From: Erysipelotrichaceae bacterium
Lineage (GTDB): Bacteria > Bacillota_I > Bacilli_A > ML615J-28 > CAG-313
DNA: 64,000 nt
NCBI GenBank assembly: GCA_015059015.1
Contig: SVBG01000002.1
Location: 175,636 to 239,635, forward strand
Reading direction: 5' to 3'
Shown here: positions 38,989 through 58,891 of the stretch, piece after piece
Numbering within the stretch: the stretch's first letter is position 1
How the letters are laid out: every line of letters starts with the position of its first letter
Translations under genes and position numbers: made by a program
Notes under the pieces: model-generated
The model's database searches: none
What the model was told of the DNA's origin: nothing
The model's input: the letters and a program-made list of their open reading frames with translations, nothing else

Positions 38989-39483
38989 ATGAAAATATCG
39001 GAACAACAATTTGACTATGTATATAATGAATATGCTAAAGAATTATATAACATTGCGTATGGATATACTCTTAATAGAGAAGATTCAATAGATATAATGC
39101 AAAACGCTTATGTAGTTTTATTAGAGTCAAATAAGAAGTTTGAATCTAATGAACATATAAAGTATTTTCTAATTAGAGTAACCATTAATGAGTCAATTGA
39201 TTTATTAAAAAGCGCCTATAAGAAAAAAGTTGTAAAAGACAACGATATTTTAGTGAAATTCCCTGAAATAAAAAAAGAAGATTTGCCATATGATTTATCT
39301 TTAATTGTTAATAATTTACCAGAAAAATATAAAACAATTATAGTTTTATATTATTATGATGATATGAAAATAAAAGATATTTCAAATGTTTTAAGAATTT
39401 CAGAATCTGCAGTAAAGAAACGATTAGAACGAGCAAGAAATCTTATTAAAGAAATTATAGAAAGGGATTATAAACATGATTGA
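38989..39483 (+). CDS. ECF sigma factor
   Basis: The 164-residue sigma factor has region 2 (about 10-75: YAKELYNIAYGYTLNREDSIDIMQNAYVVLL as scattered motifs) and region 4 (about 105-155: LPEKYKTIIVLYYYDDMKIKDISNVL, SESAVKKRLERAR). GAAAGGG precedes ATG 38989. It overlaps the downstream anti-sigma gene by 8 nt, the standard arrangement. It would redirect RNA polymerase when released from the membrane anti-sigma. Confidence 0.9.
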   Translation: MKISEQQFDYVYNEYAKELYNIAYGYTLNREDSIDIMQNAYVVLLESNKKFESNEHIKYFLIRVTINESIDLLKSAYKKKVVKDNDILVKFPEIKKEDLPYDLSLIVNNLPEKYKTIIVLYYYDDMKIKDISNVLRISESAVKKRLERARNLIKEIIERDYKHD

Positions 39484-43630: not shown

Positions 43631-43675
43631 ATGTATAATGAAAATGTTTATGAAAGAGAGGTTACTAAATTTTGA
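43631..43675 (+). CDS. Second short ORF overlapping the TTG start of the XRE-GNAT gene
   Basis: ATG 43631 has an excellent AAAGGAGG site and encodes MYNENVYEREVTKF, ending TGA at 43673-43675. The stop overlaps the TTG start of the next gene (TTGA). Translational coupling of a weakly started gene is the likely role. It has no copy at the 63336 leader. Confidence 0.5.
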   Translation: MYNENVYEREVTKF

Positions 43676-44829: not shown

Positions 44830-44833
44830 ATAA

Positions 44834-44874
44834 AAAGACACTATTTACAAAATTAGTAAGTAGTGTCTTTATTT
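44834..44874 (+). terminator. Terminator of the XRE-GNAT gene
   Basis: About 15-bp stem AAAGACACTA.../...TAGTGTCTTT (44834-44870) with inner TTAC/GTAA and a short T-rich end. Confidence 0.75.
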
Positions 44875-44914
44875 ATAATAAATGGTAGCAATTAATAATA
44901 GAATATGATATAAT

Positions 44915-44972
44915 AAAAGTATCATAAATATAAAAAAAGTATCAAGACAATGTTAAATTTATATGCTATAAT
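44915..44972 (+). promoter_or_regulatory. Twin direct-repeat operator and promoter of the XRE-methyltransferase gene
   Basis: AAAAGTATCA occurs at 44915-44924 and 44935-44944, a 20-bp period. The -10 TATAAT is at 44967-44972 (TG-extended), 23 bp after the second copy. The 46864 gene has the same layout with AAAAGTAACA. Confidence 0.65.
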
Positions 44973-44992
44973 GTAATTATGGAGGTTATATT

Positions 44993-45817
44993 ATGTTTAA
45001 AGATAAATTAAAACATTTAAGAGAAAGTGCAGGTTTAACTCAAAAAGAATTAGCTGAAAAGATATATGTATCTCGAAGTGCAATAAATAAATGGGAACTT
45101 GGTAATGGAATACCTAGTGATGTAAATCTTGATGCGATATGTAAATTATTTAATGTGTCTGAAGAATGGTTATTAGATAGAAACGATTTAAAGATTATTG
45201 CAGAAAAAATTGAAAAGTTATTAAGTCAAAAGGAAAAAGACTATATATTAGAATATTATAGTGAGTTTAATAATGAAGAATGTGGAAAGTGGAATACATC
45301 ACTAAAAGCTAAATGGTATGATTATAAAATAACTGAATATTTTGAAGAAAACTTTAATTTTAAAGAATTTAAAACAATTTGTAATATTGGTATTGGACCA
45401 GGGCACTGGGATAGGTACTTATCATATCATATGAATGATGAATGTAAATTAATAAGTATAGATATAGATTCTGATATCACAGAAACATTTAGGTTATGTT
45501 TAGAAAACGAACAAAATAAAAGAAATATAGAAATCGTCAATAGTGATATATTTGACTATATTCCTAGTCATAAATTTGATATTATTACAATGATAGGATC
45601 TACAGTTAAAGAAATTGGATTATATAAAGAAACATTTAAAAAAGCTATATCAATGCTAAATGATAATGGGGAGTTATTTTATTCAAGTGTCACAAAAGAA
45701 GAAACAAAAGATTTACTATTAAGCGCTATTAATGATACAGGATATGTAGTTAATAATTATCAAAGATTAGAAAAATATGGCAAAGTATTAATTTTGGCTA
45801 AAATAATGAAAGAATAA
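44993..45817 (+). CDS. XRE regulator fused to a class I SAM methyltransferase
   Basis: The 274-residue protein has HTH at about 4-60 (LRESAGLTQKELAEKIYVSRSAINKWE, NGIPSDVNL) and a Rossmann methyltransferase at about 95-274. The SAM-binding motif is ICNIGIGPGHWDRYL (about 132-146), then ISIDID and FDIITMIGS. The target is unknown; this could be a SAM-sensing repressor or a true enzyme. Its DNA-binding domain closely matches that of the 46864 protein, and both share a repeat operator. Two small membrane protein genes follow. Confidence 0.82.
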   Translation: MFKDKLKHLRESAGLTQKELAEKIYVSRSAINKWELGNGIPSDVNLDAICKLFNVSEEWLLDRNDLKIIAEKIEKLLSQKEKDYILEYYSEFNNEECGKWNTSLKAKWYDYKITEYFEENFNFKEFKTICNIGIGPGHWDRYLSYHMNDECKLISIDIDSDITETFRLCLENEQNKRNIEIVNSDIFDYIPSHKFDIITMIGSTVKEIGLYKETFKKAISMLNDNGELFYSSVTKEETKDLLLSAINDTGYVVNNYQRLEKYGKVLILAKIMKE

Positions 45818-45833
45818 AATATAAGGAGTGAAA

Positions 45834-46133
45834 ATGCTGATGCAAGGTTATAAATTTATGCCACCTACAAAGTTTAAAACATTATATTTAATAATAAACA
45901 TTTTAATAATTATTTCACTTATTATTGGGATGATATTTTTTGATGGTTTAATTGAAAAATCAATCCCACTTTGTATCTTTTGCTTATTTAATGGATTTTG
46001 GAGTTTAAATAGAAAGTGGTACAGTTTTTTTCATCGTAATAATAAAGAGTATTCAAATGTAGGTGTTTGGTTAATATTTATTATTATAGGAACTCTTTTA
46101 TTAGTTCTAGATGTTTTATATTATGTTGTTTAA
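45834..46133 (+). CDS. Small membrane protein
   Basis: The 99-residue protein has three hydrophobic segments (about 15-35 LIINILIIISLIIGMIFF, 40-55, 72-95 VWLIFIIIGTLLLVLDVLYYVV). ATG 45834 lies five bases after AAGGAG; ATG 45840 is an alternative. The family is unknown. It is 16 nt downstream of the XRE-methyltransferase gene and probably co-transcribed. Confidence 0.65.
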   Translation: MLMQGYKFMPPTKFKTLYLIINILIIISLIIGMIFFDGLIEKSIPLCIFCLFNGFWSLNRKWYSFFHRNNKEYSNVGVWLIFIIIGTLLLVLDVLYYVV

Positions 46134-46147
46134 AGAAAGGAAAAATT

Positions 46148-46666
46148 ATGAAAAGAAAAAGAAGTTATCTTAATTTAATAGCATTATTATTATGTTGTGG
46201 TGGAGTTATTAAATATTTTATATCTTATTTAATTGATAAAAAAACATTTGATTTAATAGGATTTATTATTATATTTATAATATTAATAGTTTTAATTATT
46301 ACATTAATAATTGAAAATATTTATTATAAGAAAAGAAATAATAAAAAATTAAATACTGAAGAAACTCGTGTTATTAAAATAAGTAAAGAAGCATTATATG
46401 AGTTTATTTATGAAAAATTTATTGAAAATCAAAATGAATATTTTGATGTAAATTCCCTTGAAGTTAATAATTTGTTTGATATAGACTATGAAAATGATAG
46501 TTTCATATTTATAGTAAGTGATAAAGATGAAGTGGATTTTTCTAAAAATATAGATTTAAAAAGATTAATAGAAAAATTACCTGATACAACAACTACTATG
46601 TTTAAAGAAGATAGATATAAAGTTTATACTAAAGAAGAATTAATAGCACTTAGTAAAAAAGATTAA
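46148..46666 (+). CDS. Membrane protein with cytoplasmic C-terminal domain
   Basis: The 172-residue protein starts MKRKRSYLN and has two transmembrane helices (about 8-30 and 38-60). A hydrophilic alpha/beta tail of about 110 residues follows (ISKEALYEFIYEKFIENQNEY, DSFIFIVSDKDEV). ATG 46148 has AAAGG upstream; earlier in-frame ATGs lie within the previous gene. Family unknown. It is 14 nt after the preceding membrane protein gene. Confidence 0.65.
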   Translation: MKRKRSYLNLIALLLCCGGVIKYFISYLIDKKTFDLIGFIIIFIILIVLIITLIIENIYYKKRNNKKLNTEETRVIKISKEALYEFIYEKFIENQNEYFDVNSLEVNNLFDIDYENDSFIFIVSDKDEVDFSKNIDLKRLIEKLPDTTTTMFKEDRYKVYTKEELIALSKKD

Positions 46667-46698
46667 ATAATACTAAAGTTATGATATAAGAATTTATG

Positions 46699-46761
46699 CC
46701 TTTATCGGCAAAAAAAGAAGAAAAAATAAAAAATAAATATTATATATTTTGCCGATAAAGG
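46699..46761. repeat. Perfect 15-bp inverted repeat
   Basis: CCTTTATCGGCAAAA (46699-46713) and its exact complement (46747-46761) flank a 33-nt A/T-rich loop. It follows the membrane protein gene. It may end transcription despite lacking a T-run, or be a short inserted element. Confidence 0.7.
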
Positions 46762-46782
46762 TGAATAGACTATTCTTTTTAT

Positions 46783-46840
46783 AAAAGTAACAATCAAATA
46801 TTAAAAGTAACAACACGAAGTACTAATATTATTATATAAT
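46783..46840 (+). promoter_or_regulatory. Twin direct-repeat operator and promoter of the 46864 gene
   Basis: AAAAGTAACA at 46783-46792 and 46803-46812 (20-bp period), then TATAAT at 46835-46840, 23 bp after the second copy. The geometry is identical to 44915-44972. Confidence 0.65.
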
Positions 46841-46863
46841 GTTGGTATAAGGAGGACAATTAT

Positions 46864-48192
46864 ATGTTCAAATACAAATTAAAAGAATTAAGAGAAAAAG
46901 CTGGTTTATCTCAGCAGGCTTTAGCAGATAAATTATTTGTTTCAAGAAGTGCTGTTGCGAAATGGGAAAATGGTAATGGTATTCCAAGTGATGTTAATCT
47001 AGAAGCAATATATGAATTATTTAATGTTACATATGATGATTTATTTGGAGAAGAAATCATTAATGAATATAGAGAAGTTACAAAGAGTAAATTTAATTAT
47101 AAAAAACTTCTTGTAGTTACAATTATAATTTCTTCCATTATTATCTTTTCTATTATTGGACTTTTAGTTATACAAAAGATTAAATATCAAAATGATTATG
47201 AACAGCATAAACAAATAATGAGAGAAGCTGCTGATTTCAACGAACCTGTTAGTTCATTTGGTGAAGTACCTGAAGTTTATTTAGATGTTATAAATAAAAA
47301 AATATTAGATAATAGTAGTAATGTTTTTCTTGATAGTAAATATATTTATACTGTTAATGATACTTCAAATAATGATATAGTTGAGATAGCTAAATATGAT
47401 TATAAATTTAATGTTATTAAGAAATTTGAATATTTTGTTTATAATGGATACAATTCAAGTATAGGTCAAATTATAACAACTTCTGATGAAGGTATACTTA
47501 TAGTCTGTAATCGTGACACATATTTTGGAGAATATTATCAATATAGAGGGTATTCTAAAATTACAAAGTATGATAACAATTATCAATTTGAATGGGAATA
47601 TACATTTACAAATGGCGAGAATAGTATTTCTGATGTTTATGAATATAATAATAATTTCTATGTTTTTTCTATTTATTCTGAATTTAGTGAAGATGTTTCT
47701 GCATCAGTATCAGATATTAAAATATATATTTTTAATCAAAGTGGTAATATAGTAGATGAAAAGAATGTAACAAATGATGAATATGGATATATAGACTTTG
47801 TACTTTTTGAAGATAAAACATTTTATATTTATGGTAGTTATCAACCTATTGAAGGAAATATAGATAACGTTTGGGAATATAATATGAATTTAGAATTAGT
47901 CAATAGCTATGAAATTGAAGAATTTTGGAGAACATATAAGTCTTCAGATGGTCTTATGATATATGAGGATGCTGTAATTGTTAATAGCACACAAATACCT
48001 AGTTCTTATGGTATAATTAATTTATGTATAAATTTAGAAACAGGTTATTTGTTAGTTTTACATAATTATATAGATTATGATTGGGAGTGGATGGAAAAAC
48101 ATCCATATTTTAATCGTGTACTAATGATATATCAAACAGTTTATTTATATATGGATTTAGATGGAAATATAGTTTGGTGTAAAAGCATATAA
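46864..48192 (+). CDS. Membrane-anchored XRE regulator with extracellular beta-rich domain
   Basis: The 442-residue protein has a cytoplasmic HTH (about 4-60: LREKAGLSQQALADKLFVSRSAVAKWE, NGIPSDVNL), a transmembrane helix (about 80-102: LLVVTIIISSIIIFSIIGLLVI) and an extracellular part (about 105-442). The last has repeated strand motifs (KYIYTVNDTS, GILIVCNRDTYFG, NNFYVFSIYSE, KTFYIYGSYQ) suggestive of a beta-propeller. It could transduce an external signal straight to DNA. A ToxR-like one-component sensor is the closest concept; family unknown. Confidence 0.8.
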   Translation: MFKYKLKELREKAGLSQQALADKLFVSRSAVAKWENGNGIPSDVNLEAIYELFNVTYDDLFGEEIINEYREVTKSKFNYKKLLVVTIIISSIIIFSIIGLLVIQKIKYQNDYEQHKQIMREAADFNEPVSSFGEVPEVYLDVINKKILDNSSNVFLDSKYIYTVNDTSNNDIVEIAKYDYKFNVIKKFEYFVYNGYNSSIGQIITTSDEGILIVCNRDTYFGEYYQYRGYSKITKYDNNYQFEWEYTFTNGENSISDVYEYNNNFYVFSIYSEFSEDVSASVSDIKIYIFNQSGNIVDEKNVTNDEYGYIDFVLFEDKTFYIYGSYQPIEGNIDNVWEYNMNLELVNSYEIEEFWRTYKSSDGLMIYEDAVIVNSTQIPSSYGIINLCINLETGYLLVLHNYIDYDWEWMEKHPYFNRVLMIYQTVYLYMDLDGNIVWCKSI

Positions 48193-48313
48193 AAATTTAT
48201 AATACAATTTGTAATATGATTTTAAAAAAATTCGTATTAAATATACCTTATAAGTGTTTATTTTTATAATTTAAGCATATAATAATATAGTATAATAATA
48301 TTTAGTTTTATAA

Positions 48314-48342
48314 TTGACAAACAATTATTAAAATGATAAAAT
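48314..48342 (+). promoter_or_regulatory. Promoter of the HipA-like kinase leader
   Basis: Perfect TTGACA (48314-48319), 17 bp, TAAAAT (48337-48342). Transcription would start near 48350 at palindrome TAGATATCTA, leaving a leader of about 130 nt. Confidence 0.75.
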
Positions 48343-48365
48343 ATTATTGTAGATATCTATGTATT

Positions 48366-48461
48366 TCATTTCTCACAGGTAGTAAATGATTAGATATTTA
48401 TATTTGTTACAATCTCGCAGGCAGTATTGTAATTTGTAGCCGTGAATAACGGCTCTTTTTT
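48366..48461 (+). ncRNA. Tandem-hairpin leader RNA with terminator, class not recognised
   Basis: Two hairpins 41-42 nt apart have unrelated stems but near-identical 12-nt loops. TCATTT/AAATGA (48366-48389) encloses CTCACAGGTAGT; TTACAAT/ATTGTAA (48407-48432) encloses CTCGCAGGCAGT. The only two loop differences (A to G, T to C) keep a possible R-Y pair across a CAGG tetraloop. A terminator follows (AGCCGT/ACGGCT, 48438-48454, then CTTTTTT), then AGGGGAGGG and the kinase gene. This looks like a tandem ligand- or protein-binding attenuator; I do not recognise it. Confidence 0.65.
48438..48461 (+). terminator. Leader terminator before the HipA-like kinase
   Basis: Perfect 6-bp GC-rich stem AGCCGT/ACGGCT with loop GAATA and CTTTTTT, only 18 nt upstream of the start codon. 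Confidence 0.85.
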
Positions 48462-48478
48462 CTTAGGGGAGGGTTTAT

Positions 48479-49459
48479 ATGTTTTTTTTAAATGATTTCA
48501 CTAATTTAACGTTTAGTAATAAACATTATGGTGGTAATGCTGGTCTTAAACGTGGAGTTATAATTAATAATAATTATTGGTTATTAAAGTTTCCTCAAGA
48601 AACATCCACTTTTGATAATGTCAAAATTTCTTTTACAACATCACCATTATCAGAATACATTGGGAGCCATATTTATCAAATTTTGGGTTATAATGCGCAT
48701 AAAACTAAACTTGGATATTATTATAATAAAGAAATTTCTAAAAGACAATTAGTTGTTGCGTGTGAAGATTTTACTGATAATGATAGGTATGTTCTTGTGG
48801 ATTATGAAAGTATTAAAAATAATTATAGTGATAAATTGCAAAATGAATTAATCAAACTTAATGAAAGGTTGCCTAATTATAAAACAAGTGGAATTTCACA
48901 GCATAGTGTTAAAATTGAAGAAATTATTCTTCAATTTGAAATGAATGATCTTTTTAAGCAAAATACGGAAATTAAAGATTTGTTTTGGGAGATGTTAGTC
49001 ATAGATTTTATAATAAATAATAATGATAGAAATAAAAATAATTGGGGTTTACTTTTTGATAAGGAGACAAAAATTTATACACCAGCGCCTATATATGATA
49101 ACGGATCTTCATTTGTTACAAAGCATAATGATGATAAATTATTAGGAATAATGTCAACCGAAGAAAAAATGACCAATTCAGTTTTAAATGGGATGTGTTA
49201 TTATACAATTGATAATAAATTAATGAACTTTAGAAATTTTTTTAAAATGTTACAAAATAAGAAGCTTGATAATGATTTTAATAATGCACTTAAATATATT
49301 AAAAGTAAAATTATAAAACATTGGGATGAAATAGTGGAATTTATACGAATAATTCCAAATGAGGAACAAAATATAAGAATAATAAGTGATATTCAAAAAA
49401 AATTTTTTATAGACTCAATGAGAATTAGAATTAATTATATTTTTGATTTAGGATTATAA
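48479..49459 (+). CDS. HipA/CtkA-like serine/threonine kinase
   Basis: The 326-residue protein resembles the CtkA/HipA kinase group. The N-terminal GGNAGLKRGVIINNNYWLLKFP (dispersed about 19-40) supplies the P-loop-like start and ATP-site Lys. IDFIINNNDRNKNNWGLL (about 178-195) is the catalytic loop with Asp in NNNDR, and APIYDNGSSF (about 206-215) is the DFG-equivalent. HipA toxins phosphorylate tRNA synthetases or other targets. No HipB antitoxin gene is adjacent; instead the gene sits behind the tandem-hairpin leader. AGGGGAGGG precedes the start. Confidence 0.78.
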   Translation: MFFLNDFTNLTFSNKHYGGNAGLKRGVIINNNYWLLKFPQETSTFDNVKISFTTSPLSEYIGSHIYQILGYNAHKTKLGYYYNKEISKRQLVVACEDFTDNDRYVLVDYESIKNNYSDKLQNELIKLNERLPNYKTSGISQHSVKIEEIILQFEMNDLFKQNTEIKDLFWEMLVIDFIINNNDRNKNNWGLLFDKETKIYTPAPIYDNGSSFVTKHNDDKLLGIMSTEEKMTNSVLNGMCYYTIDNKLMNFRNFFKMLQNKKLDNDFNNALKYIKSKIIKHWDEIVEFIRIIPNEEQNIRIISDIQKKFFIDSMRIRINYIFDLGL

Positions 49460-49496
49460 TTTTGTATTAGTAATATTTAATAGTTAAATAAATTGT

Positions 49497-49523
49497 TGAA
49501 ACTATTTTTAAGTTTGAATTGTC
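49497..49523 (+). promoter_or_regulatory. ECF-type promoter of the serpin gene
   Basis: TGAAAC (49497-49502), 17 bp, TGTC (49520-49523), followed by TTAATATATGAAG. The element at 53320-53346 has the same spacing and identical downstream bases. Confidence 0.7.
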
Positions 49524-49581
49524 TTAATATATGAAGTTATAAGACTTTATTTATATATAATAACTTTAGGAGGAAAATTGA

Positions 49582-51009
49582 ATGAGTAAAAGAAGAAGAA
49601 GTTTAATTTTGTTTATACTTGTTTTTGTTGGATTATTACTAGTTGGTTGTAATACTACAAATGATGATAATAATAATAATGAGAATAATAATCAGAATCA
49701 AGTAGAAAATAATAATCAAAATAATAATAACAACAATCAAAATAATAATAATCAAAATCAAGTTGATAATACAGAAAAAGATACTGATTTAAAATATTTA
49801 TTACTTAGTAAAAGTGAAGAAAAACAGAAAAATTTAAGTTCACAAGAATATTATAATTTTGTATCTAATGTATGTAATTTTTCTACTAATTTAACTGAAC
49901 AAATGTATTTAGAATATAGTGCAGGTTACGATCGTATGGTTGTTTCTCCAATATCTATATATATGGCTCTTGCAATGGCAACGAGTGTTGCAGAAACGGA
50001 AGCACAAACTGAACTTGCAAATCTTTTAGGAATATCATATGAAGATATACTTGAGTATACTAAATATTTATATTCAAAACTTAATAAAGAACTATATGAT
50101 GATGAAGATAAATTAACTCATATGATTAGTTTAAACAATTCTATTTGGTTAAATGAAGTATTAAATTACAAACAAGAAGGACTAGATATTTTAAAGAACT
50201 CTTTATATACTGATTCATATGCTGCACCATTTACTACAAATAATAAGGCTGCAAATAAAGCTGTTCAAGATTATGTATGTCGTAATACTAAAGGTTTAAT
50301 TAATAATGAATATAATTTTAGTGAATATACATTATTCTTATTAATAAATACTTTATATTTAAAAGATGCTTGGAGTACAATTGGTGAAGATTTAAAGTTT
50401 ACAACTAATACATATGACTTTAAAAATAAAAATAATACTACCAAAACATTAAATCTTTTAATGGGAGAATATATTAATGGGCGTGTTCAATCTGGTGATG
50501 GATTTGAATATTTCTATACAAACACAGCACATAATTTAAAGTTTTATTTTATTAAACCAACAACAAAAAGTTTAGAAGAAGTATATAATAGTAACAATTT
50601 AAATATGATTTTAAATGATACTAATTATGATGTATTTAATAGTGAAAGAAATGAATTATACTTAACTAGATGTTTATTCCCAGAATTTGACGCATCATTT
50701 GATGAAGATATTGTTCCGTTATTAAAAGATAAATATGGTATTTCAAAAATCTTTAGAGATAATGTTGCAAACTATGATAAAATAACAGATGAAGATTGTT
50801 TTACAGGTAGTGTTATTCATCAAACAAAACTTATTGTAGATAAAACAGGTGTTGAAGGTGCTGCAGTTACAATTATTGCAAATGAAGCAGAATCTGCTGG
50901 TCCTAGTTATACTTATAAATTTTATGATTTTATTCTTGATCAATCATTTGGATTTGTTATTGCAAAAGATAATACAATATTATTTAGTGGAGTAGTTAAT
51001 AATTTATAA
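49582..51009 (+). CDS. Lipoprotein serpin (serine protease inhibitor)
   Basis: The 475-residue lipoprotein has signal peptide and lipobox LVGC (Cys23), an Asn-rich linker (about 26-62) that lifts the inhibitor off the membrane, and a full serpin fold. VVSPISIYMALAMA, LLINTLYLKDAW and the hinge/reactive-loop region VDKTGVEGAAVTIIANE are visible, followed by DQSFGFVIAKDNTILFSGVV. Hinge residues (GVEGAAVT) suit an inhibitory serpin. Gut bacteria use serpins against host or competitor proteases. It shares an ECF promoter with the 53383 sigma operon and is followed closely by a lipoprotein gene. Confidence 0.9.
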   Translation: MSKRRRSLILFILVFVGLLLVGCNTTNDDNNNNENNNQNQVENNNQNNNNNNQNNNNQNQVDNTEKDTDLKYLLLSKSEEKQKNLSSQEYYNFVSNVCNFSTNLTEQMYLEYSAGYDRMVVSPISIYMALAMATSVAETEAQTELANLLGISYEDILEYTKYLYSKLNKELYDDEDKLTHMISLNNSIWLNEVLNYKQEGLDILKNSLYTDSYAAPFTTNNKAANKAVQDYVCRNTKGLINNEYNFSEYTLFLLINTLYLKDAWSTIGEDLKFTTNTYDFKNKNNTTKTLNLLMGEYINGRVQSGDGFEYFYTNTAHNLKFYFIKPTTKSLEEVYNSNNLNMILNDTNYDVFNSERNELYLTRCLFPEFDASFDEDIVPLLKDKYGISKIFRDNVANYDKITDEDCFTGSVIHQTKLIVDKTGVEGAAVTIIANEAESAGPSYTYKFYDFILDQSFGFVIAKDNTILFSGVVNNL

Positions 51010-51023
51010 TAAAAATGATATAT

Positions 51024-52013
51024 ATGAAAAAAATATTAGTAACTATTTTATTACTAGCTATATTTCTATCTTTAACTAGTTGTAATGAAGATAATAAAGG
51101 TAATCAAGATAAAGAAGGTAGCGGATATTTCTTAGTCCAATATGATTATGGTAATATAACTAAAGATGAAGTAACTATACTAATAGATGGGTGTCTTCCT
51201 TTCTTTGATTTTAATGATTATGGTATAGATAATTTATATCCAGGAGATCAATTATATATTGAATATATTGGTAAACCTATTATGGCACTATCTTATCCTG
51301 GTCAAATGTTTGGCATAGAAGTAAAGAATGTTATTTTACAAGATAGAAGTATTAAAGGAGTTCCTGAAGAAGAAATAAAAAGGGACAATCAAGGTTATAT
51401 TACAAACATCTTAAATAATGAGAATATGATTGAATATATTATTTTAGATGAAGAATTAAATTATATACCTATAAATGAATATAAAGGAACTACAATTTAT
51501 TCTTTTCATTATAATGATACTACAATTAATACTCCTGCAAACTGTTATCTAGCATTTGATCCAACAGATATTTTACTAAACACAACAACAATCTTTGGCT
51601 ATTATCAATCAACGGAAGAAGAATATAATACTTTCTTTAATAAATATAATATGTATAATAAAAATTATTATGTTATAGATAATTTTGAAACATATAGTGA
51701 GGTTCGTATTGATCTTCCAAGTGGTATAATAGGTGGTTTAGATAATCTATTATCTGATAAAGAACTAGTAAACAGATTAGATACCATTACAAGTGATTTC
51801 TTTATAAATAATGTTATTATCTTACATAGAAGAAATATTAGTGGATCTGGTAGTAAGATTTCTGTTAAATATTATTATGATACAAAAGATTTTGTTGTTA
51901 AAAAGAAATATATAAATAATATTTCAGACGAAGATGAATATTTAAATTTCTTAGGTTACGCTATTGATATTATTGAAATGCCAAAAGATATATATCAAGA
52001 ATTAAATAAATAG
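51024..52013 (+). CDS. Putative lipoprotein downstream of the serpin
   Basis: The 329-residue lipoprotein has lipobox LTSC (Cys20) and a beta-rich extracellular part. Its tail IEMPKDIYQELNK matches the 41249 lipoprotein tail. There is no clear ribosome site; ATG 51015 is in frame, but 51024 starts the signal peptide. It lies 5-14 nt after the serpin stop, so coupled translation is likely. Family unknown. Confidence 0.75.
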   Translation: MKKILVTILLLAIFLSLTSCNEDNKGNQDKEGSGYFLVQYDYGNITKDEVTILIDGCLPFFDFNDYGIDNLYPGDQLYIEYIGKPIMALSYPGQMFGIEVKNVILQDRSIKGVPEEEIKRDNQGYITNILNNENMIEYIILDEELNYIPINEYKGTTIYSFHYNDTTINTPANCYLAFDPTDILLNTTTIFGYYQSTEEEYNTFFNKYNMYNKNYYVIDNFETYSEVRIDLPSGIIGGLDNLLSDKELVNRLDTITSDFFINNVIILHRRNISGSGSKISVKYYYDTKDFVVKKKYINNISDEDEYLNFLGYAIDIIEMPKDIYQELNK

Positions 52014-52018
52014 TTTAG

Positions 52019-52050
52019 AAACTAGTTAACTTATATGTTAGCTAGTTTTT
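52019..52050 (+). terminator. Terminator of the serpin operon
   Basis: 12-bp stem AAACTAGTTAAC/GTTAGCTAGTTT (one G-U) with T-run. Confidence 0.8.
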
Positions 52051-52090
52051 AATTTATTAGTAATTTACTAAATGAATCATTGTTTTTACA

Positions 52091-52134
52091 TCAATTAATT
52101 GATAATTGCAATTATTTAATAAATAGGATATAAT
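52091..52134 (+). promoter_or_regulatory. Palindromic operators and promoter of the 52190 XRE-TPR gene
   Basis: Perfect palindromes TCAATTAATTGA (52091-52102) and ATAATTGCAATTAT (52102-52115) sit side by side. The second contains the -35 TTGCAA (52106-52111); TATAAT follows at 52129-52134 after 17 bp. Occupied operators would block the -35. Confidence 0.7.
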
Positions 52135-52189
52135 GTTAGTGTAATTACAAAAGATATATAGTTATAACTATAAGAAAGAGGATTAAATA

Positions 52190-53212
52190 ATGATTAAAGT
52201 AGGGAAAAATATAAAGAAACTTAGAGAAAAGAAAGGTTTAACACAAGAAAAATTAGCTAATTTTTTAGGTGTAACTCCTCAAGCAATATCTAGATGGGAA
52301 AATGAAACTGGTTATCCAGATATTGAACTATTACCGCTTATTGCTAATTTCTTTAATGTTACGATTGATGAATTATTAGATAGAGAAATAGAAAAGAATA
52401 AATTAGAAATACAAGACGGGATTAAAGAAATAGATAGATTAAATTCTATTGGTGAAAAAGAGAAGAGAAAAGAATTAATTATAAAGTTATATAATAAATA
52501 TCCATATAATTTTAATATTATTAATTATTATATATGGGTTCTTACATATGATGAAGAAAATAAAGATTATGATGACATTGAAAAACTATGTTTACTTATT
52601 TTAGAAGAATGTAATGACGAACAAATTAGATATTCCGCAATTGAATGTTTATCTAACTACTATAGTGTTAAAGGTGATGAAAAGAAAGCTCTTAAAATAT
52701 TAAAAAAACTTCCGCTTGATTATCGAAATACATTTGCGGAAGCAAGAGAATACTTCTATGGTGAATATGATGTTGATGGTATAATTTATAGAAAACAAAA
52801 TATTGAGACACTTACTGATATGTTATGTTGGAAAATTATGGTATCTGCAGGCTTAAGAGCAAAATCGATAGATAATTATGAAATTAGTATCGAGAATAGT
52901 ATAAAATTATATAATAAAGCTATTCAAATATTTAAAATTGTATATGAAGAGGAAGATTATTTATTTTATAATGCTAGACTTGAAATATGTGAATGGGAAT
53001 TGTATCGCTTGTATAAAAAGTTAGGTAATTTAGAAGAATCAAATATTCATCTAAAAGAAGCTATTAAATACGCAAAAGCATTTGATAAACTTAATGAATA
53101 TGAAGAACATCGATCTATATTAGTAGAAGGTAATGAGTATAACTTTGGAAATACTTCTAGAGGTGATTCTTTAACTCATTTAGAAAAAATAAATGAATTA
53201 TTAAAGAAATAG
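52190..53212 (+). CDS. XRE regulator with TPR-like C-terminus
   Basis: The 340-residue protein has HTH at about 5-62 (KKLREKKGLTQEKLANFLGVTPQAISRWEN, YPDIELLP) and a helical repeat domain (about 75-340, for example KRKELIIKLYNKYPYNFNIINYYI, KKALKILKKLPLDYRN). It is a paralogue of the 36229 and 58892 proteins. Its own promoter carries two palindromes, so autoregulation is likely. The signal is unknown. A strong terminator follows. Confidence 0.83.
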   Translation: MIKVGKNIKKLREKKGLTQEKLANFLGVTPQAISRWENETGYPDIELLPLIANFFNVTIDELLDREIEKNKLEIQDGIKEIDRLNSIGEKEKRKELIIKLYNKYPYNFNIINYYIWVLTYDEENKDYDDIEKLCLLILEECNDEQIRYSAIECLSNYYSVKGDEKKALKILKKLPLDYRNTFAEAREYFYGEYDVDGIIYRKQNIETLTDMLCWKIMVSAGLRAKSIDNYEISIENSIKLYNKAIQIFKIVYEEEDYLFYNARLEICEWELYRLYKKLGNLEESNIHLKEAIKYAKAFDKLNEYEEHRSILVEGNEYNFGNTSRGDSLTHLEKINELLKK

Positions 53213-53215
53213 TTA

Positions 53216-53247
53216 AAAAACTAGTTAATAATTTAACTAGTTTTTTT
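53216..53247 (+). terminator. Terminator after the 52190 gene
   Basis: 13-bp perfect stem AAAAACTAGTTAA/TTAACTAGTTTTT with TAAT loop and T-run. Confidence 0.88.
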
Positions 53248-53319
53248 CTAATTCTATAATATATAGTTTTAATATTTCTGGAAATTAATTATCTATTATG
53301 ATAAAATTATATTAATAAT

Positions 53320-53346
53320 TGAAACTATTTCAATTGCTAAATTGTC
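53320..53346 (+). promoter_or_regulatory. ECF-type promoter of the second sigma/anti-sigma operon
   Basis: TGAAAC (53320-53325), 17 bp, TGTC (53343-53346). TGTCTTAATATATGAAG is identical to the serpin promoter, which suggests this sigma factor controls both. Confidence 0.7.
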
Positions 53347-53382
53347 TTAATATATGAAGACGTCTTTAAAGGTAATAATTAT

Positions 53383-53919
53383 ATGAATGAAGAAAGAAAA
53401 CTACATCAGGTCTTAAAAACAGGCGACAAAGAAATAATAAATTCATATTTTGAAGAAATCTATAATAAGTACAAGGGATTAGTATGCTTTGTTATCGCAA
53501 AATACATTAAAAACTATGATGATATAGTTGATATTGCACAAGATGTGTTTTTGTCGTTTTTTAATAATGCTGATAAAGTTAATAGCAGTATTAAATATTA
53601 TTTAACAACATCTGCAAAAAATAAAGCATTAAACTATATCAAAAAATATAGTAGAATATCTATTGTAGATGATAAAGAGCTTGATGTAATACAAGAAGAA
53701 TTAAATAATAATGATACATTTGAATATATAATGGAAGTTTTGAAAGAAACCCTAACAAAACAAGAATACGAAATATTGTGTTTACATTTATTAGATAATT
53801 ATACCTTTAAGAAAATTTCTTTAAAGCAAAATATAAATGAATCAACTGTTAAAACTTTATATTACCGTGCTGTAAAGAAAGGAAAATTAGCTATTGAAAG
53901 GAAGTATAACGATGAATAA
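53383..53919 (+). CDS. ECF sigma factor
   Basis: The 178-residue sigma factor has region 2 at about 20-90 (YNKYKGLVCFVIAKY, DIVDIAQDVFLSFF) and region 4 at about 125-175 (LTKQEYEILCLHLLDNYTFKKISLKQNINESTVKTL). It overlaps the anti-sigma gene by 8 nt. Its upstream ECF promoter is shared with the serpin gene, implying autoregulation and a serpin regulon. It is paralogous in arrangement to the 38989 module. Confidence 0.88.
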   Translation: MNEERKLHQVLKTGDKEIINSYFEEIYNKYKGLVCFVIAKYIKNYDDIVDIAQDVFLSFFNNADKVNSSIKYYLTTSAKNKALNYIKKYSRISIVDDKELDVIQEELNNNDTFEYIMEVLKETLTKQEYEILCLHLLDNYTFKKISLKQNINESTVKTLYYRAVKKGKLAIERKYNDE

Positions 53920-55189
53920 AGATGAAAAAAGTTTATTAGATGAGTTAAGTAATTCAGTTGATTCAAAAATGAATTATAATGATATCGCTAATGAAATTAA
54001 TTTTTCAAAATATGAAAAGAAAAAAAGTTTTGGTTTACTTTTTTCTAAAAGATTATTACTAACAGTTTCTTCATTTGTTTTAGTTTCATTATTAATTATT
54101 ATAATAATGGTGTTCCCAAATAATGATAATAATGGTACTAATGGCCCTGATAATAATAAACCAAATAACATTTTACCAGGTAATCAAAATAATAATATTG
54201 GAGGAGATGATAATAAGGACAATATTGGTAGTGGTGAGGGGGAAAATGAAGTTAAAGTAAATATATATGATGGTTTTATTAAGAATAGTTTTGAGATAAG
54301 TATTGGTAATGGTCCTATATGCGAATCTTTAGGCCCACAACCTCCGCAACCTATTATTGATAGTTATTTTAATATTGAAAGTGAAGAATCTTCAGGTGAT
54401 TATAATGACGGTAATGGTAATGATGAATTAACTAAACCTAGTATTACAATTGGTAGTTCTAGTTTTGAATATATATATGAAGTTGAGTACAAAAATACAA
54501 TTAACTTAGAATATATTTGTGTATATATTGAGAAAGAACTTGCTGAAAAGATATATGAAGAAAATAAAGAAGTATGCGATGTTACATGCGCATCTCCACT
54601 TAATAACGTTAATGGTAGTATAGTTGATTGGTTTTATTCTAATACTTACTTTAATAAAGATAAAGTATTATGGATTTCATATAATGATGTAAATAAAATA
54701 TATTCAAAAATTAATGATTATGTATGTGTTGGTGTATATCAAATTCAAGAACGAATTATTTTAAGAGAAATATTTTCTAATACAATAGTTAATATTACTG
54801 ATTATATATATGGTAGTTTATCTTTTAGTAATAATGGTGATGAATATTTAACACCTGTTAAATATGAATTAACAAATTATGTTACTTGGTATTCATCTAA
54901 TGAAATAATTACAGAAACGAATAAAGAAAGTTTATTTAAAGATTATAGTGAATTTGAATGCAGCATAAATATTAAAGAAAATACAATTAAATTAAGAACA
55001 TTTGCTGTTCAAGATGAAGAAGAACTTTCTAAAGAGTATTCTTTATTGTTAAAAGACTATCATAAATTAAGTAATATAATTATAGTTGAAAATGATTATC
55101 CTGAAAAAGAATTAGGAGATATAACATATATAACATATAAATATAATGAGTTAGTTGAACTGATACAAGAGTTAGCTAAAAGAACATAA
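53912..55189 (+). CDS. Membrane anti-sigma factor with extracellular domain
   Basis: The 425-residue protein has a cytoplasmic N-terminus (about 1-43), a transmembrane helix (about 47-68: RLLLTVSSFVLVSLLIIIIM) and an Asn/Gly-rich linker. The extracellular domain has EYICVYIEKELAEKIYE at about 194-210, matching the 39476 protein. ATG 53912 follows AAAGGAAG. Anti-sigma function is inferred from topology and gene overlap. The extracellular part may sense the envelope or a host factor. Confidence 0.75.
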   Translation: MNKDEKSLLDELSNSVDSKMNYNDIANEINFSKYEKKKSFGLLFSKRLLLTVSSFVLVSLLIIIIMVFPNNDNNGTNGPDNNKPNNILPGNQNNNIGGDDNKDNIGSGEGENEVKVNIYDGFIKNSFEISIGNGPICESLGPQPPQPIIDSYFNIESEESSGDYNDGNGNDELTKPSITIGSSSFEYIYEVEYKNTINLEYICVYIEKELAEKIYEENKEVCDVTCASPLNNVNGSIVDWFYSNTYFNKDKVLWISYNDVNKIYSKINDYVCVGVYQIQERIILREIFSNTIVNITDYIYGSLSFSNNGDEYLTPVKYELTNYVTWYSSNEIITETNKESLFKDYSEFECSINIKENTIKLRTFAVQDEEELSKEYSLLLKDYHKLSNIIIVENDYPEKELGDITYITYKYNELVELIQELAKRT

Positions 55190-55202
55190 GAGAGGTGTTT
55201 AT

Positions 55203-57728
55203 ATGAGAAAATATTTATTAGTTTTTAGCATATTTATTATTTTAACATTTTTATCTGGATGTAATAACAACCAGGGAACTAATAAACTTATTCCAAATTC
55301 AAATAGTATTGTTATTACAAAATATTTAGGTAATAGCCAATATAGTCCAACTGATACAACAATAACCATTGATGATGATGAAATAGTAAACTACATTGTT
55401 GATAATTTTAATAGTTTAAAAGTAGAAGAAATGGATTATATTAAACCACATGGTATTATGTATACATTAAAGTTTTATAATGATTCAAATGAAGTAAAAC
55501 AAATTGAAGTTATATCTAGTAAATATCTTGCGATAAGCGATAGTATAAGTCCTTATTTTATTAAAAAAGGAGAGCTTGATCTTGATTATATAGAAAAGTT
55601 ATTTAATGATTTACCGTTAGATGATACGTTAGAACAATTAATAATTAATGCATATATAAAAAAGTATCAAATAACTTATGAACTAGAAATAGATGAGATT
55701 TATAAAACATTTAATAATAATGGAAAAAAAGTTATAGTTTTTAAAACTAAAGGACCTGCAGAGGATGTTGAATGGAATGAAACTGTAGGTGGAATAAAGT
55801 TTTATTACAGTAATCATATACGTATCGAAGTATACTCTGATGATCAGATTTATACACTAAAAGAAGCTTATGATGAAGGAATTATAACTAAAGAAAATTT
55901 AATTGAATTAAGTAACATTGTAAATGCTAATTGTACAATGGGGCATTCATTTGATGAAGGTAATGTGGTTGAAATTCCAAATGGTGGATGCGAGATATTA
56001 TATACATGTTTAGTTTGTGGGTATACAAAAACTGATTGTGGTAATCTATATTCATTAACTGTTACTGGAAATACCGAACTTATGATTGAAGATATTACCG
56101 GTGAATATGTTGAAAATTCTTTTATAAATTTGTCAATACAATGGATAATTGATGCAGATGTAGAAGTATATGTTAATGGTAAAAAAATTGATCCACTTAC
56201 TAAGCCAACATCTAATTTATCATATGTATTTAATATGCCAAATGAGGATACGGTAGTTGAAATTAAAGTTGTAACACTTGAATATGTAACACTTCAAGAA
56301 TTAGATGATTATAAATGGGCAAGTGAATTAAATAAAGAAGATATAAAAGAGGTTAGATATGAATCATCAACTGTAGGTATTAAACCAGGAAATTTAATTG
56401 ATATTAAATATTCAAATGATTCTATTGATATTTCAAATTTATATGATGCACTTATTTTAGGTCTATATGTTAAAACTGATATGGAATATGCTGTAATGGA
56501 TGGTGGAGGATATATAAAATATACCTTTATTACAAATGATAATACTTATGAAATTAATGTTGCAAATGGTTTTATAGTAAATGTTCCTGATTTGATAATA
56601 TCAAGCATAAAATTTGATTATTACAAATTTTTAGGAGAAACATATCAGTTTAAAAATCCTTACTTAGAATGTAATTCATTCCTTGTATATGATACTCATT
56701 ATGAAACGTACACAGTAGAAAACGATACTTTAATTGGTGAGTATGATGATTTAGGTGAATTTGAATTTATTCCTTATGAGGGTGGTATCCCTGAATATCT
56801 TACTCCTTATTATATAGAAACATCGTTTGGTAGAATATATATTCATACATCTAATATTTTCTATTTTAAAGATGGAAATACATTTACATATTACAAAATA
56901 GTTTCAGATAAAGATTTTAGTTTCTTATTTAATAATGCAAATTATGATATTAAAAACTTATATGCAAAATATCCTATGTTTGCAACACAAAGTTCTTATG
57001 GTAATAAAAAATTTGATGTAATATTTGACGAAGCTGTTGAGCAGAGTGAAAAATATATTATTGATATAGATGATATTAAATGTGATAGTCTTCAAGTTTT
57101 ATTTAATACTAACTTATCTGATCAATACTTAAAAGATAATTATAAAGCATTACTGTTTATAAGAGAAGAACCAATTTATTGTGATGCGTTAGAAGATATT
57201 ACATATACAGAATTATTTATTGAACGACATATCGTATATGCTAGTATTCATTATAATTCTAATGCCGAAGGCGGTGAGGCATTTTCATATTATGAAGATT
57301 TAATTTTAATACCAAACGAGTGGGTAGAAGAAATAGCTTCTTCAAAGATTAGATTTAATTTAGAAAATCATTTTTATCTTGGAAGAAATATGATTATGTC
57401 TTATACTAAAATGCAAGAATTTAAAGCTGCATATCGTAAACAAATATTAGATAAATTATTTGATGATTGTATGTATAGAGAAATATATATGCTAGATGTA
57501 TATGGAGAATATAATGATTGTTTAGTTTCAACAGTTACTTATGACGGCTATGTTCATACTGATGTGAAGTGGACATTGACTGAGACATTTGGTGATGTAA
57601 CAATTACATATAGTGGTTATTATCCTATTTGGGTTTGTTATAATTCTAAGCTTTATACTTTAACTGAAGCATATAATAACGGTTATCTAACAATTGATGA
57701 TATAATAGTTATTGCAGAAAAAGCATAA
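55203..57728 (+). CDS. Large lipoprotein of the second sigma module
   Basis: The 841-residue lipoprotein has lipobox LSGC (Cys20) and a beta-rich extracellular chain. A Cys-rich segment at about 240-280 (CTMGHSF...CEILYTCLVCGYTKTDC) resembles modules in gut surface proteins. Two internal copies of IYTLKEAYDEGIIT / LYTLTEAYNNGYLT occur at about 218-231 and 818-831. It follows the anti-sigma gene by 13 nt. Adhesion or sensing are possible roles; family unknown. Confidence 0.77.
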   Translation: MRKYLLVFSIFIILTFLSGCNNNQGTNKLIPNSNSIVITKYLGNSQYSPTDTTITIDDDEIVNYIVDNFNSLKVEEMDYIKPHGIMYTLKFYNDSNEVKQIEVISSKYLAISDSISPYFIKKGELDLDYIEKLFNDLPLDDTLEQLIINAYIKKYQITYELEIDEIYKTFNNNGKKVIVFKTKGPAEDVEWNETVGGIKFYYSNHIRIEVYSDDQIYTLKEAYDEGIITKENLIELSNIVNANCTMGHSFDEGNVVEIPNGGCEILYTCLVCGYTKTDCGNLYSLTVTGNTELMIEDITGEYVENSFINLSIQWIIDADVEVYVNGKKIDPLTKPTSNLSYVFNMPNEDTVVEIKVVTLEYVTLQELDDYKWASELNKEDIKEVRYESSTVGIKPGNLIDIKYSNDSIDISNLYDALILGLYVKTDMEYAVMDGGGYIKYTFITNDNTYEINVANGFIVNVPDLIISSIKFDYYKFLGETYQFKNPYLECNSFLVYDTHYETYTVENDTLIGEYDDLGEFEFIPYEGGIPEYLTPYYIETSFGRIYIHTSNIFYFKDGNTFTYYKIVSDKDFSFLFNNANYDIKNLYAKYPMFATQSSYGNKKFDVIFDEAVEQSEKYIIDIDDIKCDSLQVLFNTNLSDQYLKDNYKALLFIREEPIYCDALEDITYTELFIERHIVYASIHYNSNAEGGEAFSYYEDLILIPNEWVEEIASSKIRFNLENHFYLGRNMIMSYTKMQEFKAAYRKQILDKLFDDCMYREIYMLDVYGEYNDCLVSTVTYDGYVHTDVKWTLTETFGDVTITYSGYYPIWVCYNSKLYTLTEAYNNGYLTIDDIIVIAEKA

Positions 57729-57738
57729 TATTAAATAT

Positions 57739-57782
57739 AGGCTATTAAGGGAATAAAATACCTTAATAGTCTATTTGTTTTA
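57739..57782 (+). terminator. Terminator of the second sigma module
   Basis: 13-bp stem TAGGCTATTAAGG/CCTTAATAGTCTA (one G-U) followed by TTTGTTTT. Confidence 0.85.
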
Positions 57783-57794
57783 TTATATATATAT

Positions 57795-57930
57795 TTGAAA
57801 TTAGTAATTAAATATTATATAATTAGTAATGTATGGAAAACCTTACATTTAAAGTTATGATTACTTGGTGGTGTTTCACAAATTAATAGTGTATATTTAT
57901 ATTGTAATTGGCCATTACAATATAATTTTT
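57795..57930 (+). promoter_or_regulatory. Promoter and structured leader of the 57942 XRE gene
   Basis: TTGAAA (57795-57800), 17 bp, TATAAT (57818-57823). The roughly 110-nt leader has hairpin ATGTATGG/CCTTACAT near its start. An 11-bp inverted repeat TATATTGTAAT/ATTACAATATA (57898-57924, spacer TGGCC) is followed by ATTTTT just before GGAGG. The second structure may be an operator or attenuator. Confidence 0.6.
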
Positions 57931-57941
57931 GGAGGTAAAAT

Positions 57942-58766
57942 ATGAATTTTGGAAAAAATTTAACTATTTTTAGAAAAAGAAAAAACTTAAGTCAAGAAGA
58001 ACTTGCCTTTATTGTAGGTGTTTCTAGACAAACAATTTATACATGGGAAGCAGATATTGCAGGGCCTAATGTAGTTATGTTAAAAAAGATTGCTAATGCT
58101 CTTGATGTATCAATTGATGAATTAGTCAAAGGACCGAGTATTGAAGCATTACCAAATAAGATGAAAAAATATTCATTAAAATATTTGCAAGAGTATAAAC
58201 CTCTAGCTTTAAATAATATCTTAGACTGGTTTGTAAAATTAGAAATTGGATATGAGATTTGTTTTGGTTTATATGATGAAGGTATTAAAGATTATTCATA
58301 TCATTTAACTGTTTTAGGTGAAGTTATAATTCATAATCAAAAAGGATATGAGATTTTAGTAGAAGAATATAATAAGGATATGATTAAGACTAAAACTTTT
58401 TCTTTAATCGCAAGAAATGAAAATAATAAAATGCAGTTTCTTGGTAGAATTGATGATGTTAATGGTGTTAAAAAGATTCAAACATTTAAAGATGAGGAGT
58501 TTGTTGAAAAATGGGGTGGAGCGGCAAGTACATATTTTGAAAAGACTAAGAGTTTTCTATTAAAATATGGTGATATAGAATATAAGGTGATTGAAATTAG
58601 TTATTTAGTAGATGATAATATATATATTGAGTGTTATTTAAATCATGATCTTGAACCATTACTACAGAGAAGATTTGATAAAAATAGAAAATCTAATGAA
58701 ACTAGAATGGTGAATGGTAACATATATGGATTTTTCTATGATACAATAACAGATAGGTTAAAATAA
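57942..58766 (+). CDS. XRE regulator with unknown C-terminal domain
   Basis: The 274-residue protein has HTH at about 5-62 (IFRKRKNLSQEELAFIVGVSRQTIYTWE, GPNVVMLKKIANALDVS). About 200 residues of alpha/beta sequence follow, including LEIGYEICFGLYDEG, LVEEYNKDM and WGGAASTYFEKTKSF. I do not recognise the C-terminal domain. GGAGG precedes the start and a 110-nt structured leader lies upstream. Confidence 0.8.
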   Translation: MNFGKNLTIFRKRKNLSQEELAFIVGVSRQTIYTWEADIAGPNVVMLKKIANALDVSIDELVKGPSIEALPNKMKKYSLKYLQEYKPLALNNILDWFVKLEIGYEICFGLYDEGIKDYSYHLTVLGEVIIHNQKGYEILVEEYNKDMIKTKTFSLIARNENNKMQFLGRIDDVNGVKKIQTFKDEEFVEKWGGAASTYFEKTKSFLLKYGDIEYKVIEISYLVDDNIYIECYLNHDLEPLLQRRFDKNRKSNETRMVNGNIYGFFYDTITDRLK

Positions 58767-58783
58767 AACAAAATTTGTCTTAT

Positions 58784-58801
58784 CAACTGTGAGTTGTTTT
58801 T
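58784..58801 (+). terminator. Weak terminator after the 57942 gene
   Basis: Short hairpin CAACT/AGTTG followed by TTTTTAA. Confidence 0.45.
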
Positions 58802-58819
58802 AATTAAAATATTGGTCGC

Positions 58820-58865
58820 TTACATTATGTATTTTTATGTAGTATACTATTAGTGTAACCGGTTA
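58820..58865 (+). promoter_or_regulatory. Promoter and start-site palindrome of the 58892 gene
   Basis: TTACAT (58820-58825), 17 bp, TATACT (58843-58848). Palindrome TAACCGGTTA (58856-58865) lies at the expected transcription start. Confidence 0.55.
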
Positions 58866-58891
58866 TAAAATAAACTTGAAAGGAATAAAAA

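What the first reader, a model, noticed from the sequence alone, without database searches (positions are those of the whole stretch)
49497..53346. Serpin and sigma operon share an ECF promoter
TGAAAC-17 bp-TGTCTTAATATATGAAG occurs upstream of both 49582 and 53383, identical over the last 17 bases. A dedicated sigma/anti-sigma pair controlling a surface serpin implies induction by envelope damage or protease attack.
Basis: partly seen in the sequence, partly recalled or inferred. Interest (0 to 1): 0.62.

Follow-up and report, generated by a model that had tools for sequence, protein, structure and literature searches.

The report
Protease-inhibitor serpin under sigma-factor control
A gut bacterium appears to make a surface protease inhibitor from the same dedicated switch that controls its own alarm-signal operon, and relatives have fused such an inhibitor directly to the alarm's membrane sensor, which suggests a bacterial way of sensing attack by proteases.

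Summary
TGAAAC-N17-TGTCTTAATATATGAAG lies at 49497-49536 (serpin lipoprotein operon) and 53320-53359 (ECF sigma/anti-sigma operon). The 20-base core is found exactly twice in the 2.01 Mb genome (chance expectation about 5e-5), and both copies are kept in a congener. The 12-base pattern alone is not significant (3 sites against 2 in the reversed control).
The link between sigma factor and serpin recurs elsewhere. In a distant Erysipelotrichales genome, AATTGTCTTATTAA occurs exactly twice, before a serpin lipoprotein pair and before a sigma operon. In 13 of 65 serpin-bearing genomes examined the gene directly after an ECF sigma gene encodes a short cytoplasmic segment, one membrane helix and an extracellular serpin, which looks like a serpin-domain anti-sigma factor; the serpin tree forces at least three changes, and one model has a serpin fold. 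In 7 of 80 named loci a sigma gene lies just upstream of a serpin lipoprotein gene.
Best reading: the 53383 sigma factor controls itself and the serpin, as a protease defence. The inducer is inferred. I found no report of serpin anti-sigma factors.

The parts
49497..49536 (+). ECF-type promoter of the serpin operon: TGAAAC, 17 bp, TGTCTT, extended to AATATATGAAG
   Evidence: same site in congener G003
49582..51009 (+). serpin, 475 aa, predicted surface lipoprotein (LVGC), inhibitory-type hinge GVEGAAVT
   Evidence: PF00079 E=2.2e-38 over residues 97-474; closest solved structure by sequence is miropin 5ncs, 5.6e-14
51015..52013 (+). second predicted lipoprotein, 332 aa, 5 bp after the serpin gene, so probably co-transcribed; no known family
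   Evidence: kept in G003
52015..52052 (+). terminator-like hairpin closing the serpin operon
53217..53245 (+). AT-rich inverted repeat followed by a T run (AACTAGTT...AACTAGTTTTTTT), probable terminator between the HTH gene 52190-53212 and the sigma promoter
   Evidence: read by eye; not reported by the scanner
53320..53359 (+). ECF-type promoter of the sigma operon, same motif
   Evidence: identical in G003
53383..53919 (+). ECF sigma factor, 178 aa
   Evidence: PF04542, PF08281; TIGR02937 64.5 bits, cut-off 42.9
53912..55189 (+). presumed anti-sigma factor, 425 aa: about 46 aa cytoplasmic, one membrane helix, about 355 aa outside; overlaps the sigma gene by 8 bases
   Evidence: overlap; no Pfam or NCBIfam match; model failed, pLDDT 30.8
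55203..57728 (+). large predicted lipoprotein, 841 aa (LSGC), last gene of the sigma operon; no known family

Best explanation
The ECF sigma factor at 53383 is held at the membrane by the 53912 anti-sigma factor. When the anti-sigma factor is inactivated, the sigma factor transcribes two operons that carry the same promoter: its own (sigma, anti-sigma, 841-aa lipoprotein) and a serpin operon (surface lipoprotein serpin plus 332-aa lipoprotein). The serpin then traps serine proteases at the cell surface. In relatives the serpin is the outer domain of the anti-sigma-like protein itself, so the signal is most likely protease attack. SHOWN: promoter pair, its rarity, its conservation in a congener, replication in G328, fusion architecture, predicted serpin fold of one fusion. 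INFERRED: recognition by this sigma factor, anti-sigma activity, inducer, inhibition of proteases, and release by regulated intramembrane proteolysis.
For: Motif exact twice in 2.01 Mb, expectation 5e-5. Both copies intact in G003, where the gene upstream of the serpin promoter is missing but the promoter is kept. G328: AATTGTCTTATTAA exactly twice in about 1.5 Mb, both intergenic, 38 and 31 bp before a serpin gene and a sigma gene. TGAAAC-N15-18-[CT]GTC upstream of 0 of 623 and 0 of 560 other genes. Sigma gene directly upstream of a membrane-anchored serpin in 13 genomes, Pfam-confirmed for all 10 tested and for two more proteins (L311, L194). Cytoplasmic segment and helix of one fusion clade are homologous to anti-sigma N-termini of this genome (hhalign 95.5%, E=1.5e-8). 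Model of a fusion: pLDDT 83.7, membrane helix 38-71, serpin fold, loop 435-446 of low confidence. Sigma, intervening gene and serpin lipoprotein in line in Clostridia. M50 site-2 protease genes in 15 of 15 genomes searched, though this family rings in all 14 controls too. Precedent by passages: RsiV, an anti-sigma factor, is itself the receptor for lysozyme (PMC4183432).
Against: No expression data. The window's own anti-sigma ectodomain matches no serpin model and could not be modelled. G003 is a near relative (serpins 98%, sigma factors 96% identical), so its conservation is weak evidence. Of three genomes with both a fusion and a separate lipoprotein serpin (G199, G288, G328), only G328 shows a shared promoter element (by eye); it was chosen after seeing it, and its sigma copy lacks the TGAAAC -35. 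52 of 65 serpin-bearing genomes show no ECF sigma gene directly before the serpin gene. PrsW site-1 protease only in G000, 1 of 15.
Confidence: 0.68

Rival explanations
1. The sigma factor responds to general envelope stress, and the serpin is one of several surface defences that it brings along; no protease sensing is involved.
For: The window's anti-sigma ectodomain has no known family; the regulon also holds two lipoproteins of unknown kind.
Against: The regulon seems tiny (two sites), unlike broad envelope regulons (recalled); serpins are fused to, or sit beside, ECF pairs in several lineages.
Confidence: 0.25
2. The two promoters are read by another of the ECF sigma factors of this genome, or by several.
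For: 9 ECF-like sigma matches in this genome, and their promoters share a general -10 shape (by eye).
Against: By eye, sibling sigma genes carry other -35 elements (TGTCAC before 38989 and in L118, L122); the full motif lies only before 53383 and the serpin; autoregulation is usual for ECF sigma factors (recalled).
Confidence: 0.1
3. The serpin is not aimed at outside enzymes but protects secreted proteins from the cell's own proteases, or is a non-inhibitory serpin.
For: No target protease is known; the f7-family fusions have a hinge unlike the inhibitory type (EDGTTIKSIS type).
Against: The window serpin keeps the inhibitory-type hinge GVEGAAVT and its lipobox; gut serpins studied so far inhibit elastase-like host enzymes (PMC8201313, passages).
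Confidence: 0.2
4. The shared sequence is chance or a recent duplication without regulatory meaning.
For: The short 12-base form alone is not rarer than its reversed control.
Against: Long form expected 5e-5 times; flanks are not alike (20 and 15 of 40), so it is not a copied block; kept in G003 and mirrored in G328.
Confidence: 0.03

Closest known systems
SigV/RsiV lysozyme system of Bacillus subtilis and Clostridioides difficile (PMC4183432, passages)
   Same: ECF sigma factor with a one-helix anti-sigma factor; in RsiV the anti-sigma factor itself binds the attacking enzyme, and the sigma factor then drives defence against it.
   Different: Attacker would be a protease, not lysozyme; no RsiV-type domain was found in the window's anti-sigma factor or the fusions; cleavage by signal peptidase not tested.
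SigI/RsgI biomass-sensing pairs of Clostridium thermocellum and Acetivibrio (PMC3413522, PMC12484212, passages)
   Same: Anti-sigma factor with an extracellular module that sees what the regulated proteins act on (carbohydrate-binding modules there, serpin in the relatives here).
   Different: SigI is not an ECF factor (recalled); no RsgI domain matched.
[quoted passage not shown] described in PMC8012564, passages)
   Same: A gut bacterium's serpin under a dedicated regulator; there the inducer is protease (papain).
   Different: A two-component system there, ECF sigma and anti-sigma factor here.
Bacterial serpins miropin and siropins (PMC8201313, passages)
   Same: Bacterial serpins that inhibit elastase-like and other proteases; miropin is the best sequence match among solved structures (5ncs).
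   Different: I saw no sigma-factor control reported for them in the passages read.

Membership tests
ECF sigma factor | sigma-70 regions 2 and 4 only, about 180 aa | tested here: met
   PF04542, PF08281; TIGR02937 above cut-off; 178 aa
ECF sigma factor | autoregulated promoter with GAAAC-type -35 and GTC-type -10 | tested here: met
   site 53320-53359; by sequence only, transcription not testable
Class I anti-sigma factor (ASDI) | recognisable N-terminal anti-sigma domain, 101 +/- 33 aa on average (PMC7406223, passages) | tested here: not met
   no Pfam or NCBIfam match; N-terminal segment about 46 aa; not filed as class I
Transmembrane anti-sigma factor (general) | encoded with the sigma gene, cytoplasmic N-terminus, one membrane helix, extracellular part | tested here: met
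   8-base overlap with sigma gene, topology by eye; binding to sigma not testable
Serpin | full-length serpin domain | tested here: met
   PF00079 2.2e-38, profile positions 3-369 of 370
Serpin | inhibitory-type hinge (G-x-E-[GA]-A-A-[VAI]-T, recalled) | tested here: met
   GVEGAAVT in the window serpin; of the fusions, f21-family ones are close to it (GIEGGAVT, GIEGAAAT), f7-family ones are not
Serpin | covalent inhibition of a serine protease | not testable with these tools
   needs protein
RsiV-type lysozyme receptor | RsiV-type extracellular domain (DUF3298, name recalled) | tested here: not met
   no match for the window anti-sigma or the 10 fusions tested
RsgI-type anti-sigma factor | RsgI N-terminal domain | tested here: not met
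   no match
B. breve-type two-component control of serpin | two-component regulator genes next to the serpin | tested here: inconclusive
   none recognised by eye among the ORFs of at least 80 aa at 44000-60000; not all were run against Pfam

The most novel reading that the evidence does not exclude
Serpins serve in gut Bacillota as sensor domains of transmembrane anti-sigma factors: a protease that attacks the cell cleaves the serpin loop, is trapped, and the large serpin rearrangement (or the destruction that follows) releases the ECF sigma factor, which makes more serpin. The window's shared promoter would be the split form of this circuit.
Probability: 0.4. Interest if true: 0.85.

Novelty: new variant of a known kind. 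Interest (0 to 1): 0.7.

Why it matters
How commensals notice proteolytic attack is largely open; the one dedicated case in the papers I read is the B. breve two-component system. A serpin as the outer domain of an anti-sigma factor would be a direct protease receptor built from a molecular trap, in the logic of RsiV and lysozyme but with a covalent, one-shot sensor. It would make protease sensing testable with a reporter and purified enzymes, give a function to uncharacterised ECF pairs of gut bacteria, and put the well-known conformational switch of serpins to use as a transmembrane signal.

Tried and rejected
Bare TGAAACN{15,18}TGTCTT as evidence: rejected, no rarer than its reversed control. 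The third such site (C10:27593) lies inside a 322-aa reading frame, and the site at C7:148722 has 3 mismatches; neither was counted as regulon.

'Identical over the last 17 bases' as a mark of this pair alone: partly rejected. Several sigma genes of the lineage have a similar tail (for example CGTATTATTATGTGAAG, by eye), so part of the identity is a general shape of ECF promoters here; the exact sequence is still unique to the pair in this genome.

G122: its serpin and one of its sigma genes (L222) both carry TGTCTTATT, with different upstream parts (by eye): suggestive only, not counted.

Structure of the window's anti-sigma factor: failed, pLDDT 30.8 with two near-identical rows, so the window's sensor domain stays unknown; only its congener's copy turned up among the loci fetched.

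Loop position 1: with the hinge glycine taken as P15, the window serpin has Glu at P1. Among the 136 loops that the pattern found (of 79 + 88 serpin frames, some the same gene in both sets) A, S, T and E dominate (43, 31, 31, 15). The register is an assumption, so the target class is a guess.

A single origin of the fusions: not supported by the serpin tree, at least 3 changes forced by starred branches, though one of these rests on long branches (L207 with L208).

Opposite-strand sigma-like hits near serpins in L253, L259 and L265 were not counted; nor was L208 (G334), where a sigma gene lies 952 bases upstream of a weak serpin match.
Full report
WHAT IS THERE. The window lies at G000:C7:175636-239635 of a 2.01 Mb, AT-rich genome. 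The contig of its nearest congener, G003, has the same length as JAFQFT010000021.1, a Bacilli metagenome assembly from goat cecum, so this is very probably an uncultured gut Bacilli species. The serpin operon is promoter 49497-49536, serpin 49582-51009, lipoprotein 51015-52013 and terminator-like hairpin 52015-52052; the sigma operon is promoter 53320-53359, sigma 53383-53919, presumed anti-sigma 53912-55189 and lipoprotein 55203-57728. An HTH gene, 52190-53212, lies between the operons on the same strand.

CHECK OF THE MOTIF. The two promoters agree at 33 of 40 positions, with runs of 12 and 20 identical bases, while 40 bases on either side agree at 20 and 15. The 20 specified bases occur exactly twice in the genome; at up to 3 mismatches there are 5 sites against 1 in the reversed control. 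A first-order model expects 5e-5 such sites. The 12-base form gives 3 against 2 and is not evidence. In G003 both promoters are intact; the HipA-like gene 48479-49459 that precedes the serpin promoter here is absent there, and the alignment resumes at 49477, just before the promoter, so the promoter stays with the serpin. G003 is close (the nucleotide matches of more than 400 bases over this region are 91 to 97% identical), so this is modest support.

IS IT THE SIGMA FACTOR'S OWN PROMOTER? This genome has 9 ECF-like sigma matches. Reading their upstream regions by eye, several have an ECF-shaped promoter, but with other -35 elements: TGTCAC before 38989 and in L118 and L122, TGTAAC in L117. 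TGAAAC with the long -10 lies only before 53383 and the serpin. This is the usual sign of an autoregulated ECF factor, by inference.

INDEPENDENT REPLICATION. Serpin genes were sought in 395 genomes of the class; 66 had a match. I fetched surroundings for 65 of them (G127, below the family cut-off, was left out; several regions are cut by contig ends). Upstream regions (150 bases) of 74 serpin, 19 sigma and 623 other genes were compared: TGAAAC-N16-18-TGTCTT lay before 3 serpin and 2 sigma genes and 0 of 623 others. The third serpin is in G328, one of whose contigs matches in length JAFLUZ010000016.1, an Erysipelotrichales assembly. There a pair of lipoprotein serpins is preceded by TGAAAC-N17-TGTCTTATTAA. 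Elsewhere in G328 a sigma gene is followed by a serpin-bearing membrane protein, and its promoter carries the same AATTGTCTTATTAA. That 14-mer occurs exactly twice in the G328 genome, at these two places, 38 and 31 bases before the genes. Of 9 one-mismatch sites the 8 that were fetched were inspected: 7 lie inside reading frames on the other strand and 1 is intergenic. Caveats: the 14-mer was chosen after seeing it, and the -35 of the sigma copy is not TGAAAC. Two other genomes with both kinds of serpin (G199, G288) show no such sharing (by eye). In 80 named loci the pattern TGAAAC-N15-18-[CT]GTC lay before 3 of 81 serpin, 1 of 14 sigma and 0 of 560 other genes; two of the serpins are the G003 and G328 genes again, the third is L308, an uncultured Eubacteriales record that also has a sigma gene upstream.

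SERPINS FUSED TO AN ANTI-SIGMA-LIKE PROTEIN. In 13 genomes (G059, G199, G347, G328, G393, G359, G288, G293, G210, G216, G128, G090, G346) the serpin gene starts within 15 bases of, or overlaps, the end of an ECF sigma gene on the same strand, and the protein has about 35-53 N-terminal residues, one hydrophobic stretch and then the serpin. Two of these are cut by a contig end (sigma in L179, serpin in L194). Pfam finds only PF00079 in the 10 fusions tested and in L311 and L194; L207 is weak (1.3e-8). The N-terminal part of the f21-family fusions is homologous to N-termini of ordinary anti-sigma-like genes of the window's own genome, including the one at 39476 in this window (hhalign 95.5%, E=1.5e-8; the stretch includes the membrane helix). 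An AlphaFold2 model of the L322 protein (pLDDT 83.7, pTM 0.77) has two short N-terminal helices, a helix at 38-71, a serpin domain and a low-confidence loop at 435-446 where the reactive centre loop belongs; the best PDB matches are serpins, first conserpin at 4.7e-26. Trees force at least three changes of the fusion label both on the serpin side and on the sigma side, so the association probably arose more than once, with the warning that several rows have long branches.

OPERONS. In 7 of 80 named loci (L254, L283, L297, L298, L305, L307, L308) an ECF sigma gene lies 380-1499 bases upstream of a lipoprotein serpin on the same strand, and in 5 of these a membrane protein with one N-terminal helix is encoded between them (by eye; no Pfam match for the three tested); in L298 and L307 I could not resolve the gene between. 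The 80 are the best of 128 records found. These 7 are not 7 independent cases: L283, L297 and L305 are kin, and so are L298 and L307.

MECHANISM. Three genomic signs that usually mean joint function (shared rare promoter, shared operon, gene fusion) link serpins and ECF pairs in gut Bacillota. The simplest circuit is: attack, loss of anti-sigma function, sigma release, more serpin and more sigma. In the fusions the serpin is placed to be the sensor. [quoted passage not shown] M50 site-2 protease genes are present in 15 of 15 genomes searched, as in all 14 control genomes, so this is permissive only; PrsW was found in 1 of 15, so a site-1 protease, if there is one, is open. The f21 fusions keep a nearly inhibitory-type hinge (GIEGGAVT), while most f7 fusions have hinges such as EDGTTIKSIS and may sense without inhibiting. 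In the window the anti-sigma ectodomain is of unknown kind and could not be modelled; here the serpin is the output, and whether it also feeds back on the sensor is unknown.

LITERATURE. Searches for serpin with ECF sigma factor, anti-sigma, extracytoplasmic function or sigma factor, and for anti-sigma factor with protease inhibitor domain, in an open-access library only, listed no paper whose title or opening of the abstract describes a serpin anti-sigma factor or sigma control of a serpin; four of the listed papers were opened by passages and do not either, and one search listed only 25 of 55. [quoted passage not shown] breve and sugar control in B. longum (PMC8012564, passages). Subscription papers and preprints are not covered.

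VERDICT. The link is well supported by sequence; the stimulus is inference.

Noticed in passing
window 38989-41203: A second ECF sigma gene (38989-39483) with an overlapping anti-sigma-like gene (39476-41203, 575 aa), promoter of TGTCAC type by eye; its sigma factor and the N-terminus of its anti-sigma gene are kin to the f21-family serpin fusions.
   Followed up: partly
window 37252-38817: A 521-aa protein with ECF sigma regions 2 and 4 followed by a long C-terminal extension with a TrmB-like winged helix match: an ECF factor with built-in extra domains.
   Followed up: no
window 48479-49459: HipA-C-like gene (below Pfam's cut-off) present here and absent from the congener G003, with the break just before the serpin promoter.
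   Followed up: partly
L096 (G003), between the 332-aa-type lipoprotein gene and the HTH gene: G003 has a 186-aa reading frame here that the window lacks: a second insertion or deletion within the locus.
   Followed up: no
window 43672-60001: Six genes that seem to begin with a Cro/C1-type helix-turn-helix (43672, 44993, 46864, 52190, 57942, 58892) within 16 kb; only 52190 and 57942 were run against Pfam.
   Followed up: no
L195, L198-L201, L203-L205: Family f11 serpins of 520-640 aa with a membrane helix near the N-terminus, serpin domain matched in two pieces in the genome search and no sigma gene nearby: membrane-tethered serpins of another kind.
   Followed up: no
L096 (G003), reverse-strand positions 2872-3307: GPGGGLYT-type tandem repeat, readable in more than one frame, in the congener next to this locus.
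   Followed up: no
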